Both the position numbers and the translations under genes were made by a program. A stretch of 64,000 nucleotides of DNA from Commensalibacter melissae (lineage in GTDB: Bacteria > Pseudomonadota > Alphaproteobacteria > Acetobacterales > Acetobacteraceae). The notes under the pieces were generated by a model. It had not been told where the DNA came from, did not search any database, and saw nothing but the letters and a program-made list of their open reading frames with translations. This document shows positions 11,653-27,143 of the stretch, piece by piece. Location of the stretch: positions 1,666,501 through 1,730,500 of the forward strand of contig NZ_CP046393.1 of NCBI RefSeq assembly GCF_009734185.1, written 5' to 3'. The stretch's first letter is position 1. The number at the start of each line of letters is the position of its first letter.

Positions 11653-12288
11653 ATGCCTCTTTATGACTATATCCATGATGGCAAGATTATTTATCAAAAT
11701 TCCTTCGCAACCATTCGCAAAGAAGCTGACCTATCTAATTTTACAGAAGATGAAGCCAGAATTGCTGTCAGGGTTATCCATGCATGTGGACGGATCGAGA
11801 TAACAAAAAATATCGTATTCAGTCCCGATTTTATTGAAAAAAGTGAACAGGCCCTGTTCATGGGTTCCATGATTTTTTGTGATTCAGAAATGGTTGCGCA
11901 TGGAATTACTCGACGTAGACTGCCCGCCAATAATAAAATTATTTGCACCCTGAACCATCCCGATACAGTCAAGATTGCCCAAGATATAAAAAACACACGT
12001 TCAGCTGCTGCCATCCATTTATGGGGGGACACCCTGAAACAGGCGGTTGTGGTCATTGGTAATGCACCAACAGCCTTGTTTCATTTGATCAATTTATTAG
12101 ACCAGAAGAAAATCCCCCAGCCTGCAGCAATTATCGGCGTCCCTGTAGGTTTTGTGGGTGCGGCTGAATCAAAACTGGCATTGCAAGAATGGGGAAAAAT
12201 TCCATATATGATCATAACGGGCAGACAGGGTGGAAGCGCCATGGGTGTTGCCGCATTGAACGCTTTGGCCCAAAAACAGGAAATATAA
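11653..12288 (+). CDS. cobH: Precorrin-8X methylmutase CobH
   Basis: CobH moves the C11 methyl group to C12, turning precorrin-8X into hydrogenobyrinic acid. The catalytic histidine is His43 in RVIHACGR. Other family segments are FCDSEMVAHGITRRRLP and the VIGNAPTALFHL and GVPVGFVGAAESK blocks. Length (211) is normal. AGGAAA lies about 8 nt before the ATG. It sits in the middle of the cobW-cobJ run, with cobI starting 1 nt after its stop. Confidence 0.97.
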   Translation: MPLYDYIHDGKIIYQNSFATIRKEADLSNFTEDEARIAVRVIHACGRIEITKNIVFSPDFIEKSEQALFMGSMIFCDSEMVAHGITRRRLPANNKIICTLNHPDTVKIAQDIKNTRSAAAIHLWGDTLKQAVVVIGNAPTALFHLINLLDQKKIPQPAAIIGVPVGFVGAAESKLALQEWGKIPYMIITGRQGGSAMGVAALNALAQKQEI

Positions 12289-12289
12289 A

Positions 12290-13009
12290 ATGAAAGGCAC
12301 ATTATTTATATTGGGTATGGGACCGGGCGATCCTGAATTGGTGACAAAAAAAGCCGGACGCATTCTAAATTCCCTTTCTTTTATCGCTTATTTTTGTAAA
12401 AAAGGTGAAATGGGTCATGCACGTCAAATTGCCACACCATTCCTTATCCATGAATTAACAGAATTACGTTTTGAATACCCCTTGACTACAGAAATCCCTC
12501 ATTATGCTCCTGAATATAAAGAAACGTTAGAAACATTTTATGATCACTGTGCCTATAAGATTCAAAAAAAACTCGATGAAGGACAAGATATAGGATTGTT
12601 ATGTGAAGGCGATCCATTATTGTATGGATCTGCAATTTATATATTGGAAAGATTACAAGAACAATATACCATAGAGACCATTCCAGGCGTTATGGCAATG
12701 AATGGTTGCTGGAGCCGATTACATTTACCGATTGTTCGCAATGATCAAACCTTAACCATTTTGTCCGCGACTTTACCCCTCGACAAACTTTTGGTAAAAT
12801 TGAACCAGTGTGAATCCATCGTCATCATGAAAATTGGCCGCAATCTTGCAAAGGTTAAAACCGCTTTAAAGCAGACCCATTTGCTTGAACAAGCAACCTA
12901 TATTGAACGTGGCACCCAAAACCAGGAACGTATCTTGCCATTATCACAAATGCAGGATGAAAAAGCGCCCTATTTTTCACTGATCCTTATCGCCGGTAAG
13001 GAGAATTGA
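12290..13009 (+). CDS. cobI: Precorrin-2 C20-methyltransferase CobI
   Basis: This SAM-dependent methylase of the tetrapyrrole (uroporphyrin-III C/tetrapyrrole) family produces precorrin-3A. The glycine-rich N-terminus LGMGPGDPELVT (residues 6-17), the CEGDPLLYGS loop and TIPGVMAMNGCWS are diagnostic. At 239 residues it is full length. The ribosome binding site AGGAAA lies within the end of cobH, and cobJ starts 1 nt after its stop, so translation is probably coupled along cobH-cobI-cobJ. Confidence 0.95.
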   Translation: MKGTLFILGMGPGDPELVTKKAGRILNSLSFIAYFCKKGEMGHARQIATPFLIHELTELRFEYPLTTEIPHYAPEYKETLETFYDHCAYKIQKKLDEGQDIGLLCEGDPLLYGSAIYILERLQEQYTIETIPGVMAMNGCWSRLHLPIVRNDQTLTILSATLPLDKLLVKLNQCESIVIMKIGRNLAKVKTALKQTHLLEQATYIERGTQNQERILPLSQMQDEKAPYFSLILIAGKEN

Positions 13010-13010
13010 G

Positions 13011-13820
13011 ATGACGGGACATCTATACATCATAGGCCTTGGTCCTGGAGATCCTGATTTACTGACGATTGAAGCATCAAAAATTTTGCCAACCTTAACA
13101 GACCTGATTGGCTATGGTCCTTACCTTGATCGCATCCCTGATAGACCATCTTTACGAAAACATAAATCAGATAATCGCGAAGAACTCGATCGTGCCGAAC
13201 ATGCGTTAACACTTGCCGGAAAAGGCTATAAGGTTGGGGTTGTCTCTTCAGGAGATGCCGGCGTTTTTGCCATGGCCAGTGCTATTTTTGAAACCATTGA
13301 TCATGGAAAACCAATATGGAAAGAGATTGAAATAACTGTCTTACCAGGAATTTCCGCCATGTTTGCGGCTGCTGCAAGACTAGGGGCGCCTTTAGGTCAT
13401 GATTTTTGCGCCATTTCCCTTTCCGATAACCTGAAACCTTGGAAACTTATTCTGCACCGTTTAAAGCTTGCGGCTCAGGCTGATTTTGTCATAGCCCTTT
13501 ATAATGCCGTTTCCAAAGCGAGACCATGGCAACTTGATAAAGCTTTTGAATTATTGAAGGAAATTTTACCTCCCTATATTCCAGTGGCTTTTTGTCAGGC
13601 AATTTCCCGAAAAAACGAACATATTCACCTAACCACCCTGGGCGATGCCAAAGGTTCCATGGGAAATATGCAAACCCTGGTCTTGATTGGCAACCGTTAT
13701 AGTCAATTAATTCCCCAGTCACGGGAAAATATACGTCCCTGGTTCTACACACCTCGTTCGATTATAACCGAATTTATCCCTGAAGATGACTCATCAACCA
13801 TTGATAAGCCTTATCCGTAG
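13011..13820 (+). CDS. cobJ: Precorrin-3B C17-methyltransferase CobJ
   Basis: CobJ methylates C17 and drives the ring contraction that gives precorrin-4. The family is seen from the N-terminal LGPGDPDLLT loop, the TDLIGYGPYLDRIP segment, VVSSGDAGVFAMAS and VLPGISAMFAAAARLGAPLGHDFC. At 269 residues it is slightly longer than the core fold. A clear AAGGAG site precedes the ATG. Its last 47 nt overlap the end of cobK on the opposite strand, a tail-to-tail overlap with no terminator between them. Confidence 0.96.
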   Translation: MTGHLYIIGLGPGDPDLLTIEASKILPTLTDLIGYGPYLDRIPDRPSLRKHKSDNREELDRAEHALTLAGKGYKVGVVSSGDAGVFAMASAIFETIDHGKPIWKEIEITVLPGISAMFAAAARLGAPLGHDFCAISLSDNLKPWKLILHRLKLAAQADFVIALYNAVSKARPWQLDKAFELLKEILPPYIPVAFCQAISRKNEHIHLTTLGDAKGSMGNMQTLVLIGNRYSQLIPQSRENIRPWFYTPRSIITEFIPEDDSSTIDKPYP

Positions 13821-14538
13821 TTGAAACAGAAGGAAGTTGAGGCATAACAGGTCTTTGAATCATGATCACAGGAATTGACAATTTTCTTGCCGCATCAATT
13901 TTCGCATAAACAGTCTGACCACCGGAGTTTTTCGTAACAATACATTCAATATGGTATTGTTTTAAAAAATCATATTCGCTTTGCACATCAAAAGGCCCTC
14001 TAGCAGTAATGACCTCGGCATGACTTGGCAAAACCGTATCATCAGGCTTATCAACACTTCTTATCCAATAATGATGCTGGATAATATTCTCTTTAAATAA
14101 TAATATATCTTTACGACCGATAGTTAAAAATACCCTTAACGTTCTATGACCCAAAATTTTTACAGCTTCAGGAATTGAATTTACCTCATACCAATGATCA
14201 CCATCCCGCTTCTGCCATGCCGGACGTTGCAAATTCAAAAAGGGAATTCCGCAAATCTTCGCTGCCTTCCAGGCATTATTAGTCATCTGTAGGGCAAAAG
14301 GATGTGTTGCATCAATTAGGAAATCTATTTGATTATTCTTTAACCACATTATCAATCCGGTGACACCACCAAACCCACCCACACGTGATATCACATTTCT
14401 GGGTAATACAGGATTTTTTGTCACACCTGCTAGAGAAAAAATAACTTCTATGGAATCATTATTTTGCAGACAGTGTACTAATTGGGAAGCCTCACTTGTG
14501 CCACCTAAAAGCAAAATCTTTTTTCTTTTTTGTCCCAC
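13774..14538 (-). CDS. cobK: Precorrin-6A reductase CobK
   Basis: CobK uses NADPH to reduce precorrin-6A to precorrin-6B. The N-terminal LLLGGTSEASQL (residues 9-20), the DATHPFA motif and the late VTKNSGG segment are family signatures. It starts at a GTG; no in-frame ATG would keep the nucleotide-binding strand, so GTG is the best choice. At 254 residues it is full length. It converges on cobJ with overlapping ends and is divergent from cobL across about 118 nt. Confidence 0.95.
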   Translation of the reverse strand: MGQKRKKILLLGGTSEASQLVHCLQNNDSIEVIFSLAGVTKNPVLPRNVISRVGGFGGVTGLIMWLKNNQIDFLIDATHPFALQMTNNAWKAAKICGIPFLNLQRPAWQKRDGDHWYEVNSIPEAVKILGHRTLRVFLTIGRKDILLFKENIIQHHYWIRSVDKPDDTVLPSHAEVITARGPFDVQSEYDFLKQYHIECIVTKNSGGQTVYAKIDAARKLSIPVIMIQRPVMPQLPSVSTTDKAYQWLMSHLQG

Positions 14539-16996: not shown

Positions 16997-17025
16997 TATT
17001 TATTCTATTCAATAAATATTAAAAC
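16995..17025 (+). terminator. Weak terminator-like hairpin after cobM
   Basis: AATATTTATT and AATAAATATT form an all-A/T 10-bp stem overlapping the cobM stop codon, followed by AAAACCTTTTT. The stem is weak and the T-run is displaced, so termination is only plausible. Confidence 0.3.
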
Positions 17026-17543
17026 CTTTTTCGATCATTTTTCAGTCCTTTGATTTTTATCACGTGTAATTATAAAAAAACAATTCATTCAGAATGAAAC
17101 CATTTTTTAAAACATATCACTTACCATTACCAACATTAATTCCAGTTATTGTGAACAGTAAATGCATTAAAAAAAATTTTAACAAACCTATTTTCATACA
17201 AAAATAATTTGTGACAAGAAATTGCAAGATTTAACCCAGCAATCTGGATTCATATTACCCCTGAAATCGTATTCAGGAACTAAAAAAAATCATAATAATA
17301 TATTATCTCAAACTAACAACATATTTCGTTGAATCACATTCCCATACAATACTTTATGAAAAATTGAGTTAAACACCTTCGATCCTAAAACACTTAATCA
17401 AAATGCATAACATAAAAAAGGCACGACTAATAACCTTAACACATGTCAAAATTATTTTAATTAATTATTAAGAATTAGGTAAAACAAATATATAAAATTT
17501 ATCTTTACCTATTCTTGAAATTAACTTGATATAAAATTTAGTT
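17026..17543. other. AT-rich intergenic region at the left edge of the polysaccharide island
   Basis: Nothing recognisable lies here: no reading frame with a plausible start and ribosome binding site, no tRNA, no transposase remnant and no repeat matching the other island edge at 27018-27143. A short inverted repeat, CTGAA/TTCAG near 17263-17278, lacks a T-run. It separates cobM from the convergent glycosyltransferase gene. Confidence 0.5.
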
Positions 17544-19280
17544 CTAAATTTTTACCTTTCTTTTCAATAAAGTATTCCAATATTCTTTAGTGGTTGTTTT
17601 TTTTCTAAATTGCAGCATTTGTTCCCTAAACTTACTTTGTTGCAAAAAGATATATAAATAATTTTTAATAAAAAACATAATATAAAAAATTAAATGTTTT
17701 CTCTCAAAAAAATGTTTCTCACCACATTGTTTATGAAAATCATATACAATTACTTCACGTTTTCTTATAAAATCAGAAGGTCTACGATTAAATCCTTTTT
17801 GTGAAACACCTTGTTCAGAAGGTGAAAGAATAAAATTCAATAAAAATAACAAAATCTTTTTTCTTAACCTGATATGCGTATATTGATTTTCATAATAAAC
17901 AAACCCTTCTACACTACTTTTCTTTTTAACAGAATTATAAACATTGACAATTCTTTGATGATTTTCATATGGATTTGCTTCATATCTACCTGAAATAAAA
18001 TCCTCAACAGCCATCATATTCATTTTTAAGGCTACATAATTCCAAGTCGTAATATTTCTAATGAATTTATTACGAAAAAAACGCATGCCAAATTCGATTA
18101 AATTTTGAGGCGTAGAAAATGAAAAAATCAATACATTACGCAGGAGATAGTAATCTTCCATAATTTCAGAGTATTTTTTGTAAAAAGGCTCATGCCAAAC
18201 ACAAATTCCAGGCAATGACAATATTTTAGCATTACAACGTCGAGAAAATTCGATATCATCACCACGGATAAAAATTGGCAACGGCATTCCATAATCTTTT
18301 AAATGCTGGGTTGAAAATGCACAAAACCACCAACCAGCAACACCATTAACCAATCCACAAGTCGCATTTTGTAAAATTTCCCCATACAAACGCAGGTCTT
18401 GACAATGACCCTGATGATGCATGCCATAATTGTCAATGATTGTATTTCTTTCATATTGCAACCATTTTTCATCTAAAGAAAACATGGAGCCAGAAAGAAA
18501 AATATTCTTATATTTACTGGCTATAAAACTATAAAAAGCATAAGTTCTAAATACGGACTCAAAATTTAACTCGATATCATCATCCATGAATATAATATGA
18601 GTACAGCCCATCTCAGAGGCCATTAATGCAGCTCTTGTAAAACCGCCCGCCCCACCATAATTATCGCTATTTTCCAAATGAATTATATCATTATTTTTTA
18701 TATTTATTTTTTTTCCATTATTAGAAATAAAAATTAAACTATTTATTTGTGAATTAACAATACCTTCATGAATTTTCTTAACATTTTTTGTTATATAATT
18801 TTCTCTATTATATGTACAAAAACAACATCCTAATTTTACATCCTGTGTCGGTTCATCTTTGGTATAAAAAAATATTTTTTTCAAAACAACAACATCTTCA
18901 CATGAAGCCAATCGACAATAAACAGCGTCATATTTTGACCAGTTTTCAATTGTTAAATTCACTTCATTAGTAAAATAATGCGATAGTAAGTTAACTTCAT
19001 AGGAATGTGCCAATTCTTGTTTAATCCCATATACTTCTATCTTTGCTTTACCTTTTACAACCACCCCAACATTTAAATCTTTAATATTCGTATACTTAAC
19101 ATATTGTTTGGAAGGAAAGATATTATAATAAGTGTTAAAAGACACATGTGAAAAAGCATCAATATAAATATTACCATCCTGTATAACAACATCTTTTGGG
19201 CATCTGAAAAAAATTTCATTTTCTGCAACATATGGAGTTTCTACGCCCCAAGAAAAATTATGTAATATGTGCTTTTCCAT
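17544..19280 (-). CDS. GlfT2-like galactofuranosyltransferase family glycosyltransferase (first copy)
   Basis: This protein resembles bacterial and mycobacterial GlfT2, which adds galactofuranose from UDP-Galf. Residues 1-145 look like the beta-sandwich N-terminal domain. The GT-A core has the acceptor segment CTYNRE (155-160), YGGAGGFTR (208-216), the DDD metal motif FMDDD (231-235), GWWFCAF (316-322), GDD (340-342) and the conserved metal-binding histidine in VWHEPF (His363). A basic, aromatic-rich tail follows. AAGGAA precedes the ATG. No glf (UDP-galactopyranose mutase) lies in the window, so the sugar is inferred only from the family. Its base composition is clearly more AT-rich than the cob genes. 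Confidence 0.85.
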   Translation of the reverse strand: MEKHILHNFSWGVETPYVAENEIFFRCPKDVVIQDGNIYIDAFSHVSFNTYYNIFPSKQYVKYTNIKDLNVGVVVKGKAKIEVYGIKQELAHSYEVNLLSHYFTNEVNLTIENWSKYDAVYCRLASCEDVVVLKKIFFYTKDEPTQDVKLGCCFCTYNRENYITKNVKKIHEGIVNSQINSLIFISNNGKKINIKNNDIIHLENSDNYGGAGGFTRAALMASEMGCTHIIFMDDDIELNFESVFRTYAFYSFIASKYKNIFLSGSMFSLDEKWLQYERNTIIDNYGMHHQGHCQDLRLYGEILQNATCGLVNGVAGWWFCAFSTQHLKDYGMPLPIFIRGDDIEFSRRCNAKILSLPGICVWHEPFYKKYSEIMEDYYLLRNVLIFSFSTPQNLIEFGMRFFRNKFIRNITTWNYVALKMNMMAVEDFISGRYEANPYENHQRIVNVYNSVKKKSSVEGFVYYENQYTHIRLRKKILLFLLNFILSPSEQGVSQKGFNRRPSDFIRKREVIVYDFHKQCGEKHFFERKHLIFYIMFFIKNYLYIFLQQSKFREQMLQFRKKTTTKEYWNTLLKRKVKI

Positions 19281-19424
19281 TAAAATTGTTCCTTTCTTTT
19301 TAAATCATAATTATTTAAAAAAATATCAAAAATCAATTTACTTTCTTATAAGAATAATTTTAAGCTCAATATAAAAATTTATTGTTTTTATATTTTTAAA
19401 CACATTATTAGGGTTAATATAGTA

Positions 19425-20375
19425 ATGATTTATGTTTCTTTGCTCGTTCATGAAAATATTGATGTAATCATTAATCAAATTGATAATTTAAACAAATTTT
19501 ATTCTAACTGCATCATAATCATACATATTTCCAAAATTTCAAAAATAACAACAAATAATTTAAATGAAAAAATAAAAAATTTAAAAATCAAAAATGTTAT
19601 TATCAATAATAACCAAACTGACACATCATGGGGAAATGTAATAGCAGGGCATATTGCCAATATTGAATATATTAAAAATATGAAAGAGAGAGGCATTATC
19701 GTATTTCATGCATCAAATGATATGCTTATTTCCAATAAAGTTGAAAATTACGTTTCTACCACAAAATCTGCCTATAATTTAAGATTGGTTTTACCCGGAT
19801 CTTATTGGTGGCCTGCACATATGGTTTTACAGGATAAGATTTTCACTAACTTTGTTAACTCTTTTAATTCAGGCGCTATCTTTGCATCACAAATAGAAGG
19901 ATCCTTTTATGAAACAGATGTTTTATTCGAAATTATAACCCTTATTAACAAACACAATTTGCTGGATACTAACTATCACTATACTAAAGAAGAAATATTT
20001 TTTTCAACGCTAGCTCATTGCATAGGATATCAACCCAATGGATTACCCTATATTTTTTCAGAAGTTCATGATTTTGATAGGATACTATGGAGTAAATTTA
20101 CAAAAATAGACAATAACAAATTTCTTAATCCATTCATTAAGAATAAATTAAAAAAAATCTTAAATAATAAACTGTTTAAAAAAGGTGATTACAAAATTAA
20201 TATTAAAACGGTTCTATCTCTCCTAAATAAAGATACAGATTTCCTTCAAAAAAAAGAATACCTTAATGATGGCAATTATATTTGGCAAATTTATGATAAA
20301 AACCATTTATATGGGGTTAAAAGAATTAATAGAAATATTTGTGATCCTGTCAGGAAGTTTATTTCTAATTTGTAA
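19425..20375 (+). CDS. Uncharacterised protein, possible GT14-like (core-2 branching type) glycosyltransferase
   Basis: I do not recognise a named family. The protein shares ordered motifs with the middle domain of the next gene: SWGN...GH...IEY.KN (residues 68-84), HASND (95-99), SQIEG (155-159) and an EEIFFSTL segment (189-196). The pattern of a small-residue/tryptophan motif, then S-x-D, then a late acidic pair before F.TL, recalls core-2/I-branching GT14 enzymes. No signal peptide or membrane helix is evident. It is divergent from the first GlfT2-like gene and strongly AT-rich. A glycosyltransferase role is inference from these motifs and the neighbours. Confidence 0.7.
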   Translation: MIYVSLLVHENIDVIINQIDNLNKFYSNCIIIIHISKISKITTNNLNEKIKNLKIKNVIINNNQTDTSWGNVIAGHIANIEYIKNMKERGIIVFHASNDMLISNKVENYVSTTKSAYNLRLVLPGSYWWPAHMVLQDKIFTNFVNSFNSGAIFASQIEGSFYETDVLFEIITLINKHNLLDTNYHYTKEEIFFSTLAHCIGYQPNGLPYIFSEVHDFDRILWSKFTKIDNNKFLNPFIKNKLKKILNNKLFKKGDYKINIKTVLSLLNKDTDFLQKKEYLNDGNYIWQIYDKNHLYGVKRINRNICDPVRKFISNL

Positions 20376-20563
20376 TTAGATTACAATCTATCATTAAATC
20401 AACAGTGAATTTGATTATGATCATTAATTATTTTTTTTGATATAACTTTTATTTAACATCAATTAAGGTTAATGTATCGAAATATAAATCTTCATATATG
20501 TTCAAAATATTAAATTTTCATAAGATTTCTACATCAGTTTAACAATTAAAGACATTAAAAATA

Positions 20564-22444
20564 ATGATGCAAAAAATATGGTTTCCTTCTAAAGTTTTTG
20601 ACTTAGGAAAAGAAAATACAATTGATACGCTTCATATCAATAACTTTAATAACAATGATATCAGTATTCCTTTATTTTCAATATTCTTATCTAACAATAA
20701 CCAGGATTGGGTATGTTATTATACACAACCCAGTCATCATTGGGATAATCCAACCGAATTTGATATTCATTTAAGTAAAAAGGTTCAAGCACAGTATATT
20801 AAATTTCAATTAAATTCTAAAGGCAATTTAGATAAATTGGAAATAACACTGGACAATAACCACATCGACAATAATGAAGAAATAATAAATATCTCCTCTT
20901 TTATAGAAAAAACAAAAAAAGAGGCAGCTAATAGCAGGGTGGTTATTAGTACATTATTCAATGAATCTGATGATTATTTAATGTTATATATTAATAACTT
21001 TCTTTTTTTTACACCAGAAAATGTTATTTTAATATTAAATTTTCCACATAATAGACCCATTCCTAAGGCTGCTTTAACAATTAGTGACCGTATTATCATC
21101 ATTAATGGAGGATTTAAAAGACACAAATGGGGAAATACTCTATTATTAGGACATCTTGAAACGTTGGAATACGCAAAAAATAATCTTGTTTTTGACTACT
21201 TTTGTACAATGGCTTCAAATAGTCTTTTTGTAAGACACCTTACAATATCCTCCATACTAAATCAATTGAATCAAAAAACTTTAACTCCAATTGCCTCACA
21301 AAGATCTTACGATTATGATGTTGATCTTGACGCTGAAATCACTACTAATCATGGCACTTGGATGTGGCATCACTATAAATCTCTTCCCCAATTAAAAGAA
21401 CATATCATTAATGAAATCGGACTTACCCGTATTTCAGCAACCCAAATCGAGGGATTATTTGCCCATAAAAAGGATTGGTTTTTAATTCTTGAAAAAGTTG
21501 AAGAGATAAAAAACTTGGCACCTTTTTTATCCTCTCATTTTTTCGTTGCACTTGAAGAAGTCATTCCTATTTCCATTTTCAACCAGTTCGGCTCTGGATA
21601 TTATACTCATATCTGTTTTATGTTATGGACAAAACCTAACTATTTAATAGAAATCAAGGAAATTTTATCTATAGGATCACAATTACCAGATCATATTTCA
21701 TCCATTAAATGGTTTCCGAGAGATTGTTATGCATCAACAACCTTGGCTGTTTGTACATCATGGGGAAGACAATTAATTGGACTAGAAAAAAAAGAAAGAT
21801 TGCCTAACAAATTACAAGCTTCAATCATCCTTAATGATTTTTTGCAAGCCATTAAATCCAGAATACAGACATTGCCACTGACTGAAAAATGGAAACCGGA
21901 TAAAAAAAAATTGGCTTTAGATTTTCACTGGAATTATAATAATTATCCAGTGGAACGACAAAGATTTTATTTAGATATAGGTCAGCCCTTCACAGATTCA
22001 GAAGATCCAGAAACAGGACCTGCACACTTATTTTTTGAAAATACAAATCACCTTGTTGATTTATCCCTTTTTCTCATCGAGAAAAAAAATACCTGTAATA
22101 TTTTACGCTATTTTTGTCTCTCCTTTGATGCCCAGAAAAAAACTTTGGTTTCTAATATTTCCGAATTGGAGGGATATTTGTATTTATCATCACAGCAAAA
22201 GAATAAATCAATAAAAATCTCAATCGATAAAAATAAGATGAATAACTATCATCATTATCAAAAATTATTTGAACGTTTTGTAGAACATACAAATATTGAA
22301 GGGCCTCATAATTATTTTGTAAGAAATTGGGATTTAAAGGAAGAAAATGAAAATAAAATAGATTACTATTTTCTTAATTGCCAATGTATTGGTACCCCAA
22401 TTATTTCAAACAATTTAATTGAAGTTGAAATGTCAATTTTTTAA
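20564..22444 (+). CDS. Uncharacterised three-domain protein: discoidin-like N-terminus plus possible GT14-like domain
   Basis: Residues 1-100 resemble an F5/8 type C (discoidin) carbohydrate-binding fold: FDLGKENTIDTLHI, SNNNQDWVCY, then QAQYIKFQL. Residues 125-420 share motifs with the preceding gene: KWGN...GH...LEYAKN (188-206), MASNSLF (216-222), ATQIEG (292-297) and an ALEE pair (329-332). Residues 430-626 form a further domain I cannot place, with IEGPHNYFVRNWD near its end. There is no signal peptide, so it is probably cytoplasmic, acting on a glycan before export. Calling it a glycosyltransferase is inference. It has two in-frame ATGs (20564, 20567). Confidence 0.7.
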   Translation: MMQKIWFPSKVFDLGKENTIDTLHINNFNNNDISIPLFSIFLSNNNQDWVCYYTQPSHHWDNPTEFDIHLSKKVQAQYIKFQLNSKGNLDKLEITLDNNHIDNNEEIINISSFIEKTKKEAANSRVVISTLFNESDDYLMLYINNFLFFTPENVILILNFPHNRPIPKAALTISDRIIIINGGFKRHKWGNTLLLGHLETLEYAKNNLVFDYFCTMASNSLFVRHLTISSILNQLNQKTLTPIASQRSYDYDVDLDAEITTNHGTWMWHHYKSLPQLKEHIINEIGLTRISATQIEGLFAHKKDWFLILEKVEEIKNLAPFLSSHFFVALEEVIPISIFNQFGSGYYTHICFMLWTKPNYLIEIKEILSIGSQLPDHISSIKWFPRDCYASTTLAVCTSWGRQLIGLEKKERLPNKLQASIILNDFLQAIKSRIQTLPLTEKWKPDKKKLALDFHWNYNNYPVERQRFYLDIGQPFTDSEDPETGPAHLFFENTNHLVDLSLFLIEKKNTCNILRYFCLSFDAQKKTLVSNISELEGYLYLSSQQKNKSIKISIDKNKMNNYHHYQKLFERFVEHTNIEGPHNYFVRNWDLKEENENKIDYYFLNCQCIGTPIISNNLIEVEMSIF

Positions 22445-22491
22445 CATTTATATATAATTTTATACATATTAATAATGAATTGAATATTTAT

Positions 22492-22866
22492 ATGAAACGT
22501 TTGGTTTTCGACCTTGATGATACCTTAACTATTAATACTTCGGGTGTTTCTTATGCTGACAAACTCCCGAATCTACCAGTTGTTCAAAAATTAAGGGAAT
22601 ACAAGAAACAAGGATTTGAAATTATTATTCAAACAGCCAGAAATATGTATACTTATAACTGTGATATTGGAAAGATTAATGCCAATACTTTACCAATTAT
22701 CATTGAATGGTTAAAAAAACATGAAATTCCATATGATGAAATTTATGTAGGAAAACCATGGTGTGGAAAAGAGGGATTTTATATTGATGATCGTGCCATA
22801 CGACCGTCTGAATTCATTTCAATGTCTTTTGATGAAATTACAAAATTAATTGAAACAAAAAAATGA
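22492..22866 (+). CDS. HAD-superfamily phosphatase of capsule-biosynthesis type
   Basis: This small HAD-fold hydrolase has motif I in FDLDDT (residues 6-11, nucleophile Asp7, acid/base Asp9), a QTARNM segment as motif II, and a late YIDDRA acidic motif IV. At about 124 residues it lacks a cap domain. Such proteins occur next to nucleotidyltransferases in capsule loci, where they may dephosphorylate a sugar- or polyol-phosphate. I chose the ATG at 22492, giving MKRLVFDLDDT; an upstream in-frame TTG at 22480 would add four residues. Its stop overlaps the next start in an ATGA junction, so the two are coupled. Confidence 0.85.
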   Translation: MKRLVFDLDDTLTINTSGVSYADKLPNLPVVQKLREYKKQGFEIIIQTARNMYTYNCDIGKINANTLPIIIEWLKKHEIPYDEIYVGKPWCGKEGFYIDDRAIRPSEFISMSFDEITKLIETKK

Positions 22867-24485
22867 CTTCATCTTGCGTAAATATTATCACTTCTGCTGC
22901 ATATGTGAATCAAGAACTGGCAGCCGAATTTGGTTTAATTCCCCCTTCCTTTCTACCTTTGGGAACGGGAAGATTATTTGAAATACAGGTTAAAAATTTT
23001 AGAAAAAACTTAATTGAAAATTCACTAATCTATCTGACTTTGCCTGATAGCTTTATTGTTACTCCCTATGATCAACATGCTTTAAAAGAAAAAGGTGTAG
23101 TAATCGTTTCTGTCCCGGATGACATGTCTCTAGGAAATTCCCTAGTATATACGATTAATGTCATCAATGCATACAATTCGAACATACGTATTTTACACGG
23201 TGATACAATTCTTGATGATATTCCTCAAGAAATGGATATTATTGCAAGTTATCCTGATGGTGACGATTATTCTTGGGCAGTTATCAATCAAGCTGATGAT
23301 AAATATATTAAAAATCTTGAAACCATCAAATCAACCAAAGATGAAAATAATTACCGTCCAGTAGCTTGTGGCTATTTTTCTTTCTCAAAGGGGAATGAAC
23401 TGATCAAGTCCTTATGTCAAGCACGTGGAAATTTTATTGAGGGAATAAACTTATATAACAAACATCAGCCCTTAAAAATAAAAGCTATTAAAAACTGGTA
23501 TGACTTTGGACATATTCAGACTTATTTTCAATCAAGACGTTTGGTTACAACTGCAAGGGCCTTTAATTCACTCCAAATTACCTCAAATACAGTTAAAAAA
23601 ATTTCTTTTGATTCTTTTAAGATGCTTGCTGAAGCAGAGTGGTTGGAATCAACTCCACCAAATCTAAAACCCTTCACCGCTCGTCTTTTCGAATACGGAC
23701 AAGATAATGACAAAACATTCTATTCCACTGAATATCAATACACACCAACGCTAGCTGAATTATTCGTATTTTCAGATATTGGAAAAGCTACATGGAACAA
23801 AATTCTGGCCTCTTGTACTGATTTCCTGAATTTATGCGCAAAACAAAAAGGTAAAAAAAAGCGGGACGATTACACTGCACATTTAGTAGGTAACAAAACC
23901 TTTGAACGTTTGAAACTCTTTTCAAATCAAACAGGTTTTAATATCATGCATGACCTCGTTTTCAATGGTAATAAATATCCATCATTATTAACTATTGCAA
24001 ATAATTTGTCAGATTTTATTACAAAAAATCCTGAAGAATTATGTACAATCATGCATGGCGATTTTTGTTTCAGTAACATTTTATATAATTCACGCAATCG
24101 TCGTATTACAGTGATTGATCCAAGAGGATATGTATTTCCCCATATAAAGGAAAAATATGGTGATTTACGTTATGATATGGCCAAGCTATCCCATTCAATT
24201 AACGGGTTATATGACTTTATCATAACAGGACGCTATAATCTTATTAACAATAATCAATATGATTTCGAACTAAAATTTGATTTATCATCTTCCCATAAAT
24301 GGCTACAGACATATTTTAATAAAATAAATATTGCAAATATTACGGTTTCAAGCAAAGAAATCCAAGCTATGACCATAGCATTATTTTTGTCGATGTTACC
24401 TTTACATGCTGATCGCCCTGATCGACAAAAAGCATTTATTGCAAATGCCTTACGTTTATATTCGATATTTGAAAGAAAAGATTAA
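22863..24485 (+). CDS. Nucleotidyltransferase-kinase fusion (sugar NTase domain plus APH/choline-kinase-like domain)
   Basis: There are two domains. Residues 1-235 form a nucleotidyltransferase-like fold with LPLGTGRLFE (31-40) as a modified glycine-rich loop, HGDT (112-115) as the metal-binding aspartate, and WYDFGHIQTY (212-221), a typical sugar-NTase ending. Residues 250-540 form a phosphotransferase of the aminoglycoside/choline kinase fold with catalytic HGDFCFSN (398-405), metal-binding IDPRG (Asp419) and GDLRYDMAKLSHS (433-445). The glycine-rich loop is degenerate, so NTase activity may be altered. It is coupled at both ends to the phosphatase and to the second nucleotidyltransferase. 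The substrate is unknown; a phosphorylated polyol, sugar or amino alcohol is inferred. Confidence 0.85.
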   Translation: MTSSCVNIITSAAYVNQELAAEFGLIPPSFLPLGTGRLFEIQVKNFRKNLIENSLIYLTLPDSFIVTPYDQHALKEKGVVIVSVPDDMSLGNSLVYTINVINAYNSNIRILHGDTILDDIPQEMDIIASYPDGDDYSWAVINQADDKYIKNLETIKSTKDENNYRPVACGYFSFSKGNELIKSLCQARGNFIEGINLYNKHQPLKIKAIKNWYDFGHIQTYFQSRRLVTTARAFNSLQITSNTVKKISFDSFKMLAEAEWLESTPPNLKPFTARLFEYGQDNDKTFYSTEYQYTPTLAELFVFSDIGKATWNKILASCTDFLNLCAKQKGKKKRDDYTAHLVGNKTFERLKLFSNQTGFNIMHDLVFNGNKYPSLLTIANNLSDFITKNPEELCTIMHGDFCFSNILYNSRNRRITVIDPRGYVFPHIKEKYGDLRYDMAKLSHSINGLYDFIITGRYNLINNNQYDFELKFDLSSSHKWLQTYFNKINIANITVSSKEIQAMTIALFLSMLPLHADRPDRQKAFIANALRLYSIFERKD

Positions 24486-25210
24486 TGATAGTTATTCCAA
24501 TGGCGGGACTGTCCAGCCGTTTTTCAAAAGCAGGATATACGCAACCTAAATACATGTTGCCTTTAAATGGAAAAACAGTTTTTGCCCATTCAGTTGAAAG
24601 TTTCAAAGCATATTTCCAAGATACTCCATTTCTGTTCATTGCCCGTTCAACTATGAATACGGAAAATTTTATACAAACTGAAATTGACAAGCTTGGTATC
24701 AAAAAAGCAAATATAGTCATTCTAGATCATCCAACCGCTGGACAGGCAGAAACTGTAGAATATGGAATTCACAAAGCCGGACTTGAAAATAACATGGCAC
24801 TGACAATATTCAATATTGATACCTTTAGAAGGGATTTTCATTTTCCCCAACAAGAATGGTTTAAACATTCTGACGGATATCTAGAAGTATTTAAGGGTAA
24901 TGGTGAAAACTGGTCTTACGTGGAACCAGATTCTGAAAGTCAAGAGCCTATCGCGCTAAGAACCGCAGAAAAAAAACCAATATCCGATTTATGTTGTAAC
25001 GGTCTTTATCACTTCAAGAAATCCGAAGATTTCCTATATGCTCTTCAACAAGAAAGAAAAACGCCTTCTACATCCGAATTATATATAGCGCCTTTATATA
25101 ATTATTTAATTCAAAATAATAAAAAAATTCACTATAAACTTGTTAATAAAGATTGCATAACATTCTGTGGAATTCCCGCGGAATATGAAGCTTTATGCAA
25201 AAACTCTTAG
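24485..25210 (+). CDS. NTP-transferase-family nucleotidyltransferase
   Basis: It is predicted to activate a phosphorylated small molecule or sugar to a nucleoside diphosphate form. The N-terminal motif MAGLSSRFSKAGYTQPKYMLPL (residues 6-27) is the glycine/arginine loop plus substrate lysine of the NTP_transferase family. AGQAETV (about 86-92) and a FNIDTF metal-binding aspartate follow, then a short core without the left-handed beta-helix of acyl- or multimerising NTases. The start overlaps the previous stop (TAATG). It ends the plus-strand island operon and converges on the second GlfT2-like gene. Confidence 0.85.
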   Translation: MIVIPMAGLSSRFSKAGYTQPKYMLPLNGKTVFAHSVESFKAYFQDTPFLFIARSTMNTENFIQTEIDKLGIKKANIVILDHPTAGQAETVEYGIHKAGLENNMALTIFNIDTFRRDFHFPQQEWFKHSDGYLEVFKGNGENWSYVEPDSESQEPIALRTAEKKPISDLCCNGLYHFKKSEDFLYALQQERKTPSTSELYIAPLYNYLIQNNKKIHYKLVNKDCITFCGIPAEYEALCKNS

Positions 25211-25221
25211 CTTTGATATAA

Positions 25222-25241
25222 AACTGGACTAATGTCCAGTT
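25222..25241. terminator. Hairpin between convergent island genes, probable bidirectional terminator
   Basis: AACTGGAC and GTCCAGTT form a perfect 8-bp stem with the loop TAAT, placed between the nucleotidyltransferase stop and the end of the second GlfT2-like gene. There is no strong T-run on either side. The same ACTGGAC/GTCCAGT stem core occurs in the speD-speE terminator at 33257-33281. Confidence 0.5.
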
Positions 25242-25247
25242 AACCAA

Positions 25248-27017
25248 TCATCTCTTGAATTGATAAACCTTTCTCCAAAATTTTTCTGTCATGATTTTTG
25301 GAACCACTTGTCTATATTCTCTTTTTAATTTTTTGAATCTAACAGCAAATTGAATCATCAATTTCAAACCTAAAAACAATTCGGAAAAAAATTTTTTTTT
25401 ATTATATATCGCTACATAACCTTTATTATATTCACTTGAATAATATAATATATTCCTCTCTAGAAATATTTCATATGGAAAATGTTTTATTTCCTTTTTA
25501 CTCAGAATAAGTCTGTCTCTAATAAAAAAATCAGGAAGAAAAAAACCATTGAAGGTCATAATAATAATGATTTTTTTCAATATAGGAAAACGAACTTGCC
25601 TGATACTTGGTTTTAGTTGATCTATATCAACATCATCCATTTTCTCTGCCGACAATACATTCGAAATGACAGGATATATATCCGTTAAGGATAAATAGCG
25701 TGTCCAGAATTCTGGACCTCGCATAACATGTTGCAAAGCAATGCTAGTAGCTCGGGCAGAAGCATAACGATAGGTTAAAATGGAAATAAATATCCAACGT
25801 ATATAACGCCAGACATAAATCCATAAAGAACAATCTGAATATATCAAAGCCAAAGCAAAATTGGCCCTTACGCTTAAATATCGGGGTAAGGGGCCATCCT
25901 TGTAACGGAAATCCTCTCCAAAAACACATATGCCATTCACAGTAATAATATTGAAATGATTCATTAATCCGAAAAGCATATCATCTCCCTTAACAAAAAA
26001 AGGAAATGGAAAATAATTTACATCTTCAATCTTAAAGGCAAAATGCCACCAAGCACCATATTCAATTTTCTTTTTATCTAAATCAGTCGCTATAATTGTT
26101 TCAAATTTCGATATATCAAGACCACAATATAGCTGTATCAAGCTTAAGGGCTTATACTGGGCACCCTTCTCATGAATGATTGTCGATTCTTTTTCATATA
26201 ACATGGTTCCAGCTATTGCCAATCGCTCCACGACTGAATATTGCAATAATCTGAAAGTCTTGATTATAGATTCAATTTCACAACTGGCATCATCATCCAT
26301 AAAAAGACAATGTGTATAATGATGATCTTTCAAATACAGTAATCCGCGTGTAAATCCCCCGGATCCTCCATAATTGAGATTAGAAATAACAATCGCCTCC
26401 CCTGCCTCTTCTGAAGAAACATCTCGAGAATTATCTACAATAATAAGATCAATGTTGTTTTTAAAAGATTCATTAGATAAAAGCTGCGTTTCTATCCGCC
26501 GAATGGCAGGGATCAGATATTTTTTACGATTATAGTGCGTAATAACTATTCCTAATTTTACATAGTTAACAGGATCTGTTTTGGTGCAAAAAGAACCACC
26601 CTGTATGAAACATTCGCCCTTTGTATCTATTGTAAAATGAAGAATGCCTTGTTTTTTCAATAAAAATGAGCAATCAATGCAAAAACAATTTTGATCTTTA
26701 TTTAAATAAACTTGTTTTTCAATAACACGCTTTGATGAAGAAGGCTGGTAATTTTTGTCTGTCAACCAGAACCTCAATACAAATTCACCTTTTCCCTGTA
26801 ACTGAAAATGAAGATCTTTGAGTTGGCAATATTTACGCCATGTATTTAAGGAAAAATAATTGAAATATGTTCCAAAAGAAATTCTGCAATTTTTTTCAAG
26901 AATAATTCCATCATTTTCCGATAACGGTTGTATACCGCCTTTTTGAATATCAAAATATAATTTTTCTGAAATATCTGATAAATGATTATTAAAAAGCAGA
27001 TTTTGAAGAACATACAT
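25248..27017 (-). CDS. GlfT2-like glycosyltransferase (second copy, lacking the metal-binding histidine)
   Basis: It has the same layout as the first copy: a beta-sandwich-like N-terminus (residues 1-150), then a GT-A core with THYNRK (160-165), YGGSGGFTR (216-224), FMDDD (239-243), WWHFAF (323-328) and GDD (344-346). Where the first copy has VWHEPF, this one has VFGEDF, so Gly367 replaces the histidine that binds the metal in GlfT2. It may use another ligand, transfer a different sugar or be weakly active. The pair is diverged, not a recent duplication. It lies 126 nt downstream of cbiD on the same strand. Confidence 0.85.
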   Translation of the reverse strand: MYVLQNLLFNNHLSDISEKLYFDIQKGGIQPLSENDGIILEKNCRISFGTYFNYFSLNTWRKYCQLKDLHFQLQGKGEFVLRFWLTDKNYQPSSSKRVIEKQVYLNKDQNCFCIDCSFLLKKQGILHFTIDTKGECFIQGGSFCTKTDPVNYVKLGIVITHYNRKKYLIPAIRRIETQLLSNESFKNNIDLIIVDNSRDVSSEEAGEAIVISNLNYGGSGGFTRGLLYLKDHHYTHCLFMDDDASCEIESIIKTFRLLQYSVVERLAIAGTMLYEKESTIIHEKGAQYKPLSLIQLYCGLDISKFETIIATDLDKKKIEYGAWWHFAFKIEDVNYFPFPFFVKGDDMLFGLMNHFNIITVNGICVFGEDFRYKDGPLPRYLSVRANFALALIYSDCSLWIYVWRYIRWIFISILTYRYASARATSIALQHVMRGPEFWTRYLSLTDIYPVISNVLSAEKMDDVDIDQLKPSIRQVRFPILKKIIIIMTFNGFFLPDFFIRDRLILSKKEIKHFPYEIFLERNILYYSSEYNKGYVAIYNKKKFFSELFLGLKLMIQFAVRFKKLKREYRQVVPKIMTEKFWRKVYQFKR

Positions 27018-27143
27018 ATAATATCGGACCCGCTTTCATCTAATGATTGATCTAAACACTTACCTTATTTTAGCAATATTTTCTAATAAAATATGATAAT
27101 CTAATAATTAATCAGAAATCCAATATTTGATATTATTAATACA

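What the first reader, a model, noticed from the sequence alone, without database searches (positions are those of the whole stretch)
17544..27017. Uncharacterised surface-glycan island between two halves of the cobalamin gene cluster
Seven genes with AT-richer composition separate cobM from cbiD: two GlfT2-like glycosyltransferases pointing left at the edges and five tightly spaced genes pointing right. Gene content suggests synthesis and transfer of an activated phospho-substituent onto a furanose-containing polysaccharide. I recognise no described locus with this exact set, and no transposase or attachment repeat explains its arrival.
Basis: partly seen in the sequence, partly recalled or inferred. 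Interest (0 to 1): 0.75.

Follow-up and report, generated by a model that had tools for sequence, protein, structure and literature searches.

The report
Probable fructose-decoration glycan gene island
A seven-gene island that builds part of the cell-surface sugar coat sits between two blocks of vitamin B12 genes; three of its genes form a set found in many bacteria which, because the same set lies in a capsule locus known to attach fructose, probably activates fructose so that it can be attached to the coat, a step whose chemistry appears not to have been worked out.

Summary
The seven AT-rich genes are real and lie where described. A second genome of the species has them all; none of seven other species of the genus has the set. 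The nearest has only G7, so G1-G6 were probably added beside it (or lost there); the interval varies in the others.

The core is not unknown. HAD phosphatase (G4, EcbF-BcbF), kinase-plus-nucleotidyltransferase-fold protein (G5) and nucleotidyltransferase (G6) occur together in 79 of 87 loci examined (capsule, O-antigen, LPS core; several phyla). Published kfoE-deletion primers match exactly both edges of the G5 homologue in the E. coli K4 fructosyl-chondroitin locus; that deletion is reported to stop fructosylation. The K11 capsule plasmid has the unit too, and EcbF-BcbF bears gene names of Pasteurella serogroups whose capsules carry fructofuranose. G5 matches no glycosyltransferase family, so I read the trio as making nucleotide-activated fructofuranose, G2/G3 (one unnamed family) as its likely transferases, and G1/G7 as GlfT2-like furanosyltransferases, probably acting on LPS. 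New variant of a known kind.

The parts
16997..17543 (.). AT-rich intergenic stretch (GC 0.23) after cobM; weakly homologous to the cobM-G7 spacer of the nearest other species, so it seems to predate G1-G6
   Evidence: alignment score 313 against 232 +/- 11 for 200 mononucleotide shuffles, best 262.5 (best of 200 local scores 272); GC
17544..19280 (-). G1: GlfT2-like furanosyltransferase, 578 aa, with DDD, DD and WH residues of GlfT2 retained
   Evidence: Pfam Glft2_N 32.6 bits, over the cut-off; 4fix E 3.4e-25 with alignment
19425..20375 (+). G2: 316 aa, unnamed family, related to the core of G3; homologues in four of 87 other trio loci; candidate transferase
   Evidence: no Pfam family; hhalign with G3 95.5 percent, E 1.4e-8; tblastn hits in L029, L063, L062, L059
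20564..22444 (+). G3: 626 aa, N-terminal F5/8 type C (carbohydrate-binding-like) domain plus G2-like core; candidate transferase directly upstream of the trio
   Evidence: Pfam F5_F8_type_C 30.7 over 28.2; homologues in three of 87 trio loci, all Acetobacteraceae: L030, L035, L036
22480..22866 (+). G4: HAD phosphatase of the EcbF-BcbF family (probable start 22492)
   Evidence: TIGR01689 189.4 bits, cut-off 162; PDB 1xpj E 8e-49; DxDxT and DD residues in 97 percent or more of 61 sequences
22863..24485 (+). G5: KfoE homologue; N-terminal nucleotidyltransferase fold without the catalytic signature, C-terminal APH-type kinase domain
24485..25210 (+). G6: nucleotidyltransferase, BcbE-like by size and fold class, with intact GxSxR...K signature
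   Evidence: PDB 4evw (Vibrio cholerae RC9) E 9.4e-76; signature in 97 percent or more of 59 sequences
25222..25241 (.). perfect hairpin AACTGGAC-TAAT-GTCCAGTT between convergent G6 and G7, followed by a short T-run when read on the - strand: possible terminator
   Evidence: read directly from the sequence printed
25248..27017 (-). G7: GlfT2-like protein, 589 aa, older resident of the site (76 percent identical in the nearest species); lacks the His of the GlfT2 WH motif

Best explanation
The island adds fructofuranose, and probably galactofuranose, to a surface glycan, most likely the LPS O-polysaccharide or core. G4-G5-G6 make the donor: the kinase half of G5 phosphorylates the anomeric hydroxyl of fructose 6-phosphate (or of fructose), the HAD phosphatase G4 removes the other phosphate, and G6 couples the resulting fructose 2-phosphate to a nucleotide, giving NDP-2-fructofuranose. 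This is the order of steps of the heptose pathway (kinase, HAD phosphatase, nucleotidyltransferase; recalled). G3 and G2, which share a core domain and stand beside the trio where WavE or the family of the K4 and K11 genes stands in many other loci, transfer it. G1 (and perhaps G7) transfer galactofuranose from UDP-Galf made by the genome's single Glf. SHOWN HERE: gene content, families, co-occurrence of the trio, membership of G5 in the KfoE family, presence of the trio in the K4 and K11 loci. TAKEN FROM PAPERS: K4 and P. multocida B and E capsules carry Fruf; kfoE deletion stops K4 fructosylation. INFERRED: the reaction order, the anomeric phosphate, the nucleotide, that the sugar is fructose in this bacterium, the roles of G2/G3, and the LPS target.
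For: Published kfoE-deletion primers match 50 of 50 bases at both edges of the G5 homologue of L142, whose neighbour matches K4 chondroitin synthase 2z86 over 625 residues; PMC7429809 states that kfoE was deleted to prevent fructosylation and that K4 has a beta-fructofuranose branch (passages). The K11 kps plasmid CP103510.1 named in PMC10433991 (passages), whose legend lists fructose among group 3 capsule sugars, is the trio-bearing hit H1/L028; that K11 is the fructose-bearing one is recalled. EcbF-BcbF appears to be named after genes of P. multocida serogroups E and B (bcb and ecb genes are their markers: passages), and both capsules have beta-D-Fruf side chains. All three genes were detected in 79 of 87 loci (order). 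Within 4 kb of the kinase in 84 loci: WavE 35, the K4/K11 gene family 16, G3 family 3, G2 family 2, none 30; WavE and the K4/K11 family overlap in 1 against 6.7 expected, p = 9e-4, as for alternative partners. Three of 39 G5-family members match fructosamine kinase. Glf is in 9 of 9 genus genomes. Own genome: no Poly_export match, one Wzy_C match, one ABC2_membrane match beside an ABC ATPase that I read by eye as Wzt-like.
Against: No enzyme of the trio has a biochemically shown substrate in anything I read. C. jejuni HS1 has Fruf branches, yet no trio-sized genes appear in its 11-gene table; its transferase HS1.08 differs in name and size (no sequence compared). Vibrio sp. KMM 8419 has a BcbE-like gene in a cluster whose capsule is Rha-Glc without fructose, though that cluster also holds O-antigen genes. 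E. coli O78 and O20/O137 O-antigen clusters carry the trio, and the O78 structure as I recall it has no fructose (acid-labile Fruf could have been lost). The literature calls KfoE itself a fructosyltransferase. Window G5 is only 39 percent identical to KfoE. Gene order differs in two of the five E. coli chromosomal loci read. 30 of 84 loci have none of the four candidate transferase families within 4 kb. The profiles were built partly from these same loci, and the exclusivity p-value ignores their relatedness.
Confidence: 0.55

Rival explanations
1. KfoE/G5 is itself the fructosyltransferase, as the literature names it, and the HAD and G6 genes play an accessory or unrelated part.
For: PMC7429809 and PMC7925653 call KfoE the fructosyltransferase (passages); the basis, Liu et al. 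2014, was seen only as a citation. The N-domain has a nucleotide-sugar-binding fold that lacks the pyrophosphorylase signature and could in principle have been re-used.
Against: The C-terminal half has invariant HGDxCFxN and DPRG residues and matches APH in 26 of 39 family members. The trio keeps varying, transferase-like partners, which would then be superfluous. In a Legionella plasmid a 322-aa gene has only the kinase half, beside HAD, nucleotidyltransferase and two WavE genes; but a Tn3 transposase gene lies 0.6 kb upstream, so it may be a truncated copy and counts for little.
Confidence: 0.12
2. One reading: a phospho-substituent such as phosphocholine, phosphoethanolamine or glycerol phosphate is activated as a CDP-alcohol (LicA-LicC logic) and transferred.
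Against: A CDP-alcohol route needs no phosphatase (recalled), yet the HAD was detected in 80 of 87 loci. No LicD-type transferase among the seven at E up to 1. The K4 and serogroup B/E structures as given in the passages name fructofuranose and no phospho-substituent.
Confidence: 0.15
3. The trio activates another furanose or sugar in this lineage, such as ribofuranose, and only some branches of the family serve fructose.
For: Wide family: Pseudomonadota, Bacteroidota, Bacillota. APH-type kinases acting on ribofuranose C1 are known (methylthioribose kinase, recalled). No glycan structure was found for a locus near the window's branch. The O20 antigen is recalled as containing ribofuranose, and an O20/O137 cluster carries the trio.
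Against: The loci that could be tied to a sugar at all point to fructose: K4 by paper, K11 partly by recall, Pasteurella B/E through the family name only. Their places in the tree were not computed, so this says little about the window's branch.
Confidence: 0.15
4. Ordinary accessory glycosylation cassette without a defined product: partly decayed or silent, of no special chemistry.
For: Patchy distribution (G5 in 16 of 150 family genomes, own two included); AT-rich; G7 lacks a residue aligned with the GlfT2 His.
Against: All seven frames intact in two genomes of the species at 97.9-99.7 percent protein identity, like the flanking cobalamin genes (97.8-100); motif residues of G4, the kinase half of G5, G6 and G1 intact.
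Confidence: 0.03

Closest known systems
E. coli K4 capsule kfo locus (fructosyl-chondroitin), HAD-KfoE-nucleotidyltransferase segment
   Same: Same three families in the same order and packing (L142 11899-14566); G4 56, G5 39, G6 47 percent identical
   Different: K4 polymer genes (chondroitin synthase, epimerase, dehydrogenase) and the 477-aa partner are not in the window; capsule exported by Kps genes, for which the window genome gave no match
E. coli K11 capsule plasmid cluster (CP103510.1)
   Same: Trio in the same order
   Different: Partner of the K4/K11 family and a CDP-glycerol transferase-like gene; plasmid-borne with export genes
Pasteurella multocida serogroup B/E capsule genes (BcbE, BcbF, EcbF)
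   Same: G4 is over the EcbF-BcbF cut-off; a 241-aa BcbE-family protein in PMC11641403 corresponds to G6 in size and fold class
   Different: The Pasteurella loci themselves were not read here
Trio loci of acetic acid bacteria (Gluconobacter L030, Asaia L031, Gluconacetobacter L032, Bombella L034, Ameyamaea L036)
   Same: G5 49-60 percent identical; window G5 in a clade with the first four, 100/99 support; G3 homologues in L030 and L036
   Different: No G1, G2 or G7 match in those stretches; L032 and L034 have ABC export genes nearby
GlfT2 galactofuranosyltransferase (4fix)
   Same: N-terminal domain and GT core with DDD; G1 keeps DD and WH
   Different: Acceptor unknown; no arabinogalactan pathway looked for; G7 lacks the His

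Membership tests
EcbF-BcbF capsule biosynthesis phosphatase (TIGR01689) | score over the curated cut-off | tested here: met
   G4 189.4 bits against 162
KfoE-type fructosylation module | HAD, KfoE homologue and nucleotidyltransferase adjacent, in that order | tested here: met
   window order G4-G5-G6; same as L142
KfoE-type fructosylation module | needed for fructofuranose on a surface glycan | not testable with these tools
   reported for K4 kfoE only; needs deletion and NMR
KfoE-type fructosylation module | K4/K11-type partner gene beside the trio | tested here: not met
   no hit of the C16b profile to the window ORFs at E up to 1e-4; G2 and G3 stand beside the trio instead
APH-type kinase (C-terminal half of G5) | Pfam APH match | tested here: inconclusive
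   G5 itself 13.3 bits, under the 23.2 cut-off; 26 of 39 alignment members match at E up to 0.01
Sugar nucleotidyltransferase (N-terminal half of G5) | fold | tested here: met
Sugar nucleotidyltransferase (N-terminal half of G5) | GxSxR...K signature | tested here: not met
   in the profile alignment with G6 the SSR and K positions are other residues
GlfT2 family (G1) | Glft2_N over cut-off and DDD, DD, WH residues | tested here: met
   G1: 32.6 bits, residues retained
GlfT2 family (G7) | Glft2_N over cut-off and DDD, DD, WH residues | tested here: not met
   25.0 bits under 26.1; DDD and DD present, no His
LicA-LicC-LicD phosphocholine system | LicD-type transferase present | tested here: not met
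   no LicD match for any of the seven proteins at E up to 1
Known glycosyltransferase family for G2/G3 | match to a named family | tested here: inconclusive
   no Pfam match for G2 or for the G3 core; the G3 structure job could not be placed

The most novel reading that the evidence does not exclude
HAD (EcbF/BcbF), KfoE and BcbE-like proteins are a general bacterial pathway to a nucleotide-activated ketofuranose, NDP-2-fructofuranose, made through fructose 2,6-bisphosphate and fructose 2-phosphate. It would be the missing donor for fructosylated capsules, O-antigens and LPS cores; KfoE is then a misnamed donor enzyme, the transferases are the exchangeable partners (WavE, the K4/K11 family, G2/G3), and some published acid-degraded LPS structures, such as O78, may have lost an acid-labile fructose.
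Probability: 0.45. Interest if true: 0.82.

Novelty: new variant of a known kind. Interest (0 to 1): 0.6.

Why it matters
How bacteria activate fructose for surface glycans seems open: in my searches of an open-licence library no listing, and no passage that I read, describes such a donor pathway for a capsule or LPS; most listed papers were not opened, and subscription papers are mostly not held. The trio makes the question directly testable with three proteins. If right, it renames a gene used in industrial chondroitin production (kfoE), gives a genome marker for fructosylated surfaces in several phyla, and predicts overlooked fructose in known LPS structures. For this acetic acid bacterium it suggests a species-specific surface sugar.

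Tried and rejected
Acquisition from a distant donor: not favoured, because window G5 falls in a clade with Gluconobacter, Asaia, Gluconacetobacter and Bombella (100/99) and its codon use is not foreign. Capsule export by a Kps system in the own genome: a KpsM query found nothing in 9 genomes, without a positive control, and Poly_export nothing in G000 although it rings in 4 of 14 control genomes. GT14-like fold for G2/G3: a by-eye idea, no database support; the G3 structure job was never accepted. A common superfamily of WavE, the K4/K11 family and G2/G3: hhalign gave 86 percent for G2-WavE over 110 columns and nothing for the other pairs, so not claimed. PDB search with the G5 profile gave only matches that I take as chance (designed repeat proteins, spike proteins). 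The APH half of the G5 model did not appear in the fold list because the N-domain filled it, which is no evidence on its fold. Library searches for EcbF/BcbF, wavE and Vibrio core fructose gave little. PMC10149009, a comparative study of Commensalibacter, has no occurrence of capsul-, O-antigen, glycosyl- or lipopolysaccharide in its main text. Recalled and not read: fructose in the V. cholerae core and in K11, the O78 and O20 structures, the heptose pathway order, the role of the GlfT2 residues.
Full report
Observation. The seven genes are present as described. They are AT-rich (gene GC 0.257-0.346 against 0.399, sd 0.026, for 40 other ORFs of the window, of which the lowest has 0.338), but their synonymous codon choice is not foreign: they use A/T-ending codons even more strongly than the background does. 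G3-G6 are tightly packed; G2 stands 188 bp ahead of G3.

Distribution in the genus. Nine genomes of the genus are held; all carry cbiD. The second genome of the same species carries all seven genes at the same place, 97.9-99.7 percent identical at protein level, like its cobalamin genes (DNA). None of the seven other species carries G5 or G3; the only other G1 matches outside the species are distant relatives, in G003 and G006 (23 and 25 percent). G2, G4 and G6 were not searched genus-wide, only in the fetched stretches. The nearest species by its cobalamin proteins, G003, has G7 alone between cobM and cbiD (76 percent identical); G006 has a G7 relative (49 percent) at another place, beside a gene that I read by eye as a polyprenyl-phosphate glycosyltransferase. 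The other intervals hold genes that I read by eye as ethanolamine ammonia-lyase and a permease (G002, G004), one 915-aa ORF (G006), a long ORF that runs into a contig end before cobM is seen (G005), or only 340-623 bp (G001, G007). The interval is thus a variable site. DNA similarity to G003 stops 12 bp after cobM and resumes at 25260, inside the end of G7; the spacer after cobM is still recognisably homologous (score 313 against 232 +/- 11 in 200 mononucleotide shuffles). So G1-G6 lie as a block between an older spacer and an older G7: inserted in this species' line, or lost in G003; the absence elsewhere favours insertion.

The trio. In 87 loci examined (these 80, four plasmid loci and three viral contigs), all three genes were detected in 79; no HAD in 7 and no G6 in 1, some of them at contig ends. 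That call scored presence in the locus; the order HAD-kinase-nucleotidyltransferase is seen for most loci, and two of five E. coli chromosomal loci read have the nucleotidyltransferase gene first. The loci are ABC-transporter capsule loci of acetic acid bacteria, LPS-core loci with kdkA and wavE of Vibrio, Photobacterium, Marinobacter and others, and Bacteroidota and Paenibacillus loci. The sample is chosen by similarity to G5 and is not random. In the family of the window species 16 of 150 genomes, 13 of 91 genera, have G5, the species' own two included. Window G5 groups with Gluconobacter, Asaia, Gluconacetobacter and Bombella (100/99).

Link to fructose. A tblastn search of plasmids gave 7 records, among them the E. 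coli plasmid NZ_CP103510.1. PMC10433991 states that CP103510.1 carries the K11 kps cluster, and a figure legend lists fructose among the sugars of group 3 capsules (passages; the figure was not seen; that K11 is the fructose-bearing one is recalled). A DNA search of E. coli genomes gave matches in 120 of 5426 genomes, mostly to the HAD part only; I read five of the chromosomal loci, and all five have the trio. One, L142 of strain SCU-115, has a protein matching the K4 chondroitin synthase structure 2z86 over 625 residues. PMC7429809 prints the primers with which kfoE was deleted in K4 to prevent fructosylation, and states that K4 has a beta-fructofuranose branch (passages). Their first 50 bases match L142 without mismatch at 12220-12269 and 13839-13888, exactly flanking the G5 homologue at 12270-13838; in the five other loci compared the best matches are 28-36 of 50. 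G5 is therefore a KfoE homologue (39 percent), and loss of this protein is reported to abolish fructosylation in K4. The HAD next to KfoE scores 193 bits for EcbF-BcbF. That family appears to be named after genes of Pasteurella multocida serogroups E and B (bcbD and ecbJ are their markers in PMC10336434, passages), and both capsules carry beta-D-fructofuranose side chains (PMC10627249, abstract and passages). The Pasteurella loci themselves were not read.

Partners. The gene directly upstream of the trio in K4 (477 aa) and in K11 (562 aa) belongs to one family, also found near the trio in other loci. Within 4 kb of the kinase, in 84 loci, that family occurs in 16, WavE in 35, the G3 family in 3, the G2 family in 2 (4 in 87 loci by tblastn), none in 30. 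Only two loci hold two of these families; WavE and the K4/K11 family overlap once where 6.7 is expected by chance, p = 9e-4, without correction for relatedness and with profiles built partly from these loci. I take these as alternative transferases for the trio's product; in the window G3 and G2 hold that position.

Mechanism and confidence. A kinase, a phosphatase and a nucleotidyltransferase in one unit suggest the heptose-type order: phosphorylate the anomeric position of a sugar phosphate, remove the other phosphate, couple to a nucleotide. For fructose that means fructose 6-phosphate, fructose 2,6-bisphosphate, fructose 2-phosphate, NDP-fructofuranose. The literature's name of KfoE, fructosyltransferase, goes back to a paper that I saw only as a citation; loss of fructose in the mutant would be explained as well by a donor enzyme. 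I hold the trio-fructose link at about 0.65 for the family and 0.55 for the window.

Target. The own genome has a Glf (as do all 9 genus genomes), one Wzy_C-type protein, one ABC2_membrane protein beside an ABC ATPase and no Poly_export match. This points to LPS rather than to a Kps capsule; it is an inference.

Against. C. jejuni HS1 makes Fruf branches without trio-sized genes in its locus table (strain IA3902 of the same complex has unknown genes of 240, 507 and 132 aa, the sizes of the trio, but their sequences were not seen). A Vibrio capsule without fructose comes from a locus with a BcbE-like gene. E. coli O78 and O20/O137 clusters carry the trio although the O78 structure, as recalled, lacks fructose. 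A kinase-half gene without the N-domain in a Legionella plasmid lies 0.6 kb from a Tn3 transposase gene and may be truncated, so it is not used as evidence. No substrate has been shown for any of the three enzymes in what I read.

Verdict. The full seven-gene set was found only in this species among what was searched; its core is a widespread, named but, as far as I saw, biochemically unassigned unit for which the evidence points to fructofuranose activation.

Noticed in passing
window 16997-27143; L018, L019, L020, L021, L022, L023, L024: The cobM-cbiD interval is a variable site in the genus: G7 only, eutBC-like genes with a permease, a 915-aa ORF, a long ORF running into a contig end, or only 340-623 bp.
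   Followed up: partly
L142 12270-13838: KfoE of E. coli K4, called a fructosyltransferase in the literature, is the homologue of G5, which has nucleotidyltransferase-like and kinase-like halves; the 477-aa neighbour may be the real transferase.
   Followed up: partly
L141 8798-14728 (E. coli O78 O-antigen cluster) and L144 11854-14566 (O20/O137): The trio, with a WavE-like gene in O78, lies in O-antigen clusters; the O78 structure as recalled does not account for it; possible acid-labile fructose.
   Followed up: no
L130 3942-8097 (Legionella sainthelensi plasmid): A 322-aa gene matches only the kinase half of G5, beside HAD, nucleotidyltransferase and two WavE genes; a Tn3 transposase gene 0.6 kb upstream may have cut off its N-domain.
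   Followed up: no
L128 7813-12727 (G006): A G7 relative (49 percent) sits beside a 716-aa membrane protein and a polyprenyl-phosphate glycosyltransferase-like gene (by eye), a possible other home of the G7 family.
   Followed up: no
L014, L015, L016 (IMG/VR contigs): Three contigs classed as viral carry relatives of G5; whether they are true phage genes or host DNA was not checked.
   Followed up: no
window 25222-25241: Perfect 8-bp hairpin between the convergent ends of G6 and G7, with a short T-run on the - strand side.
   Followed up: no
   Followed up: no
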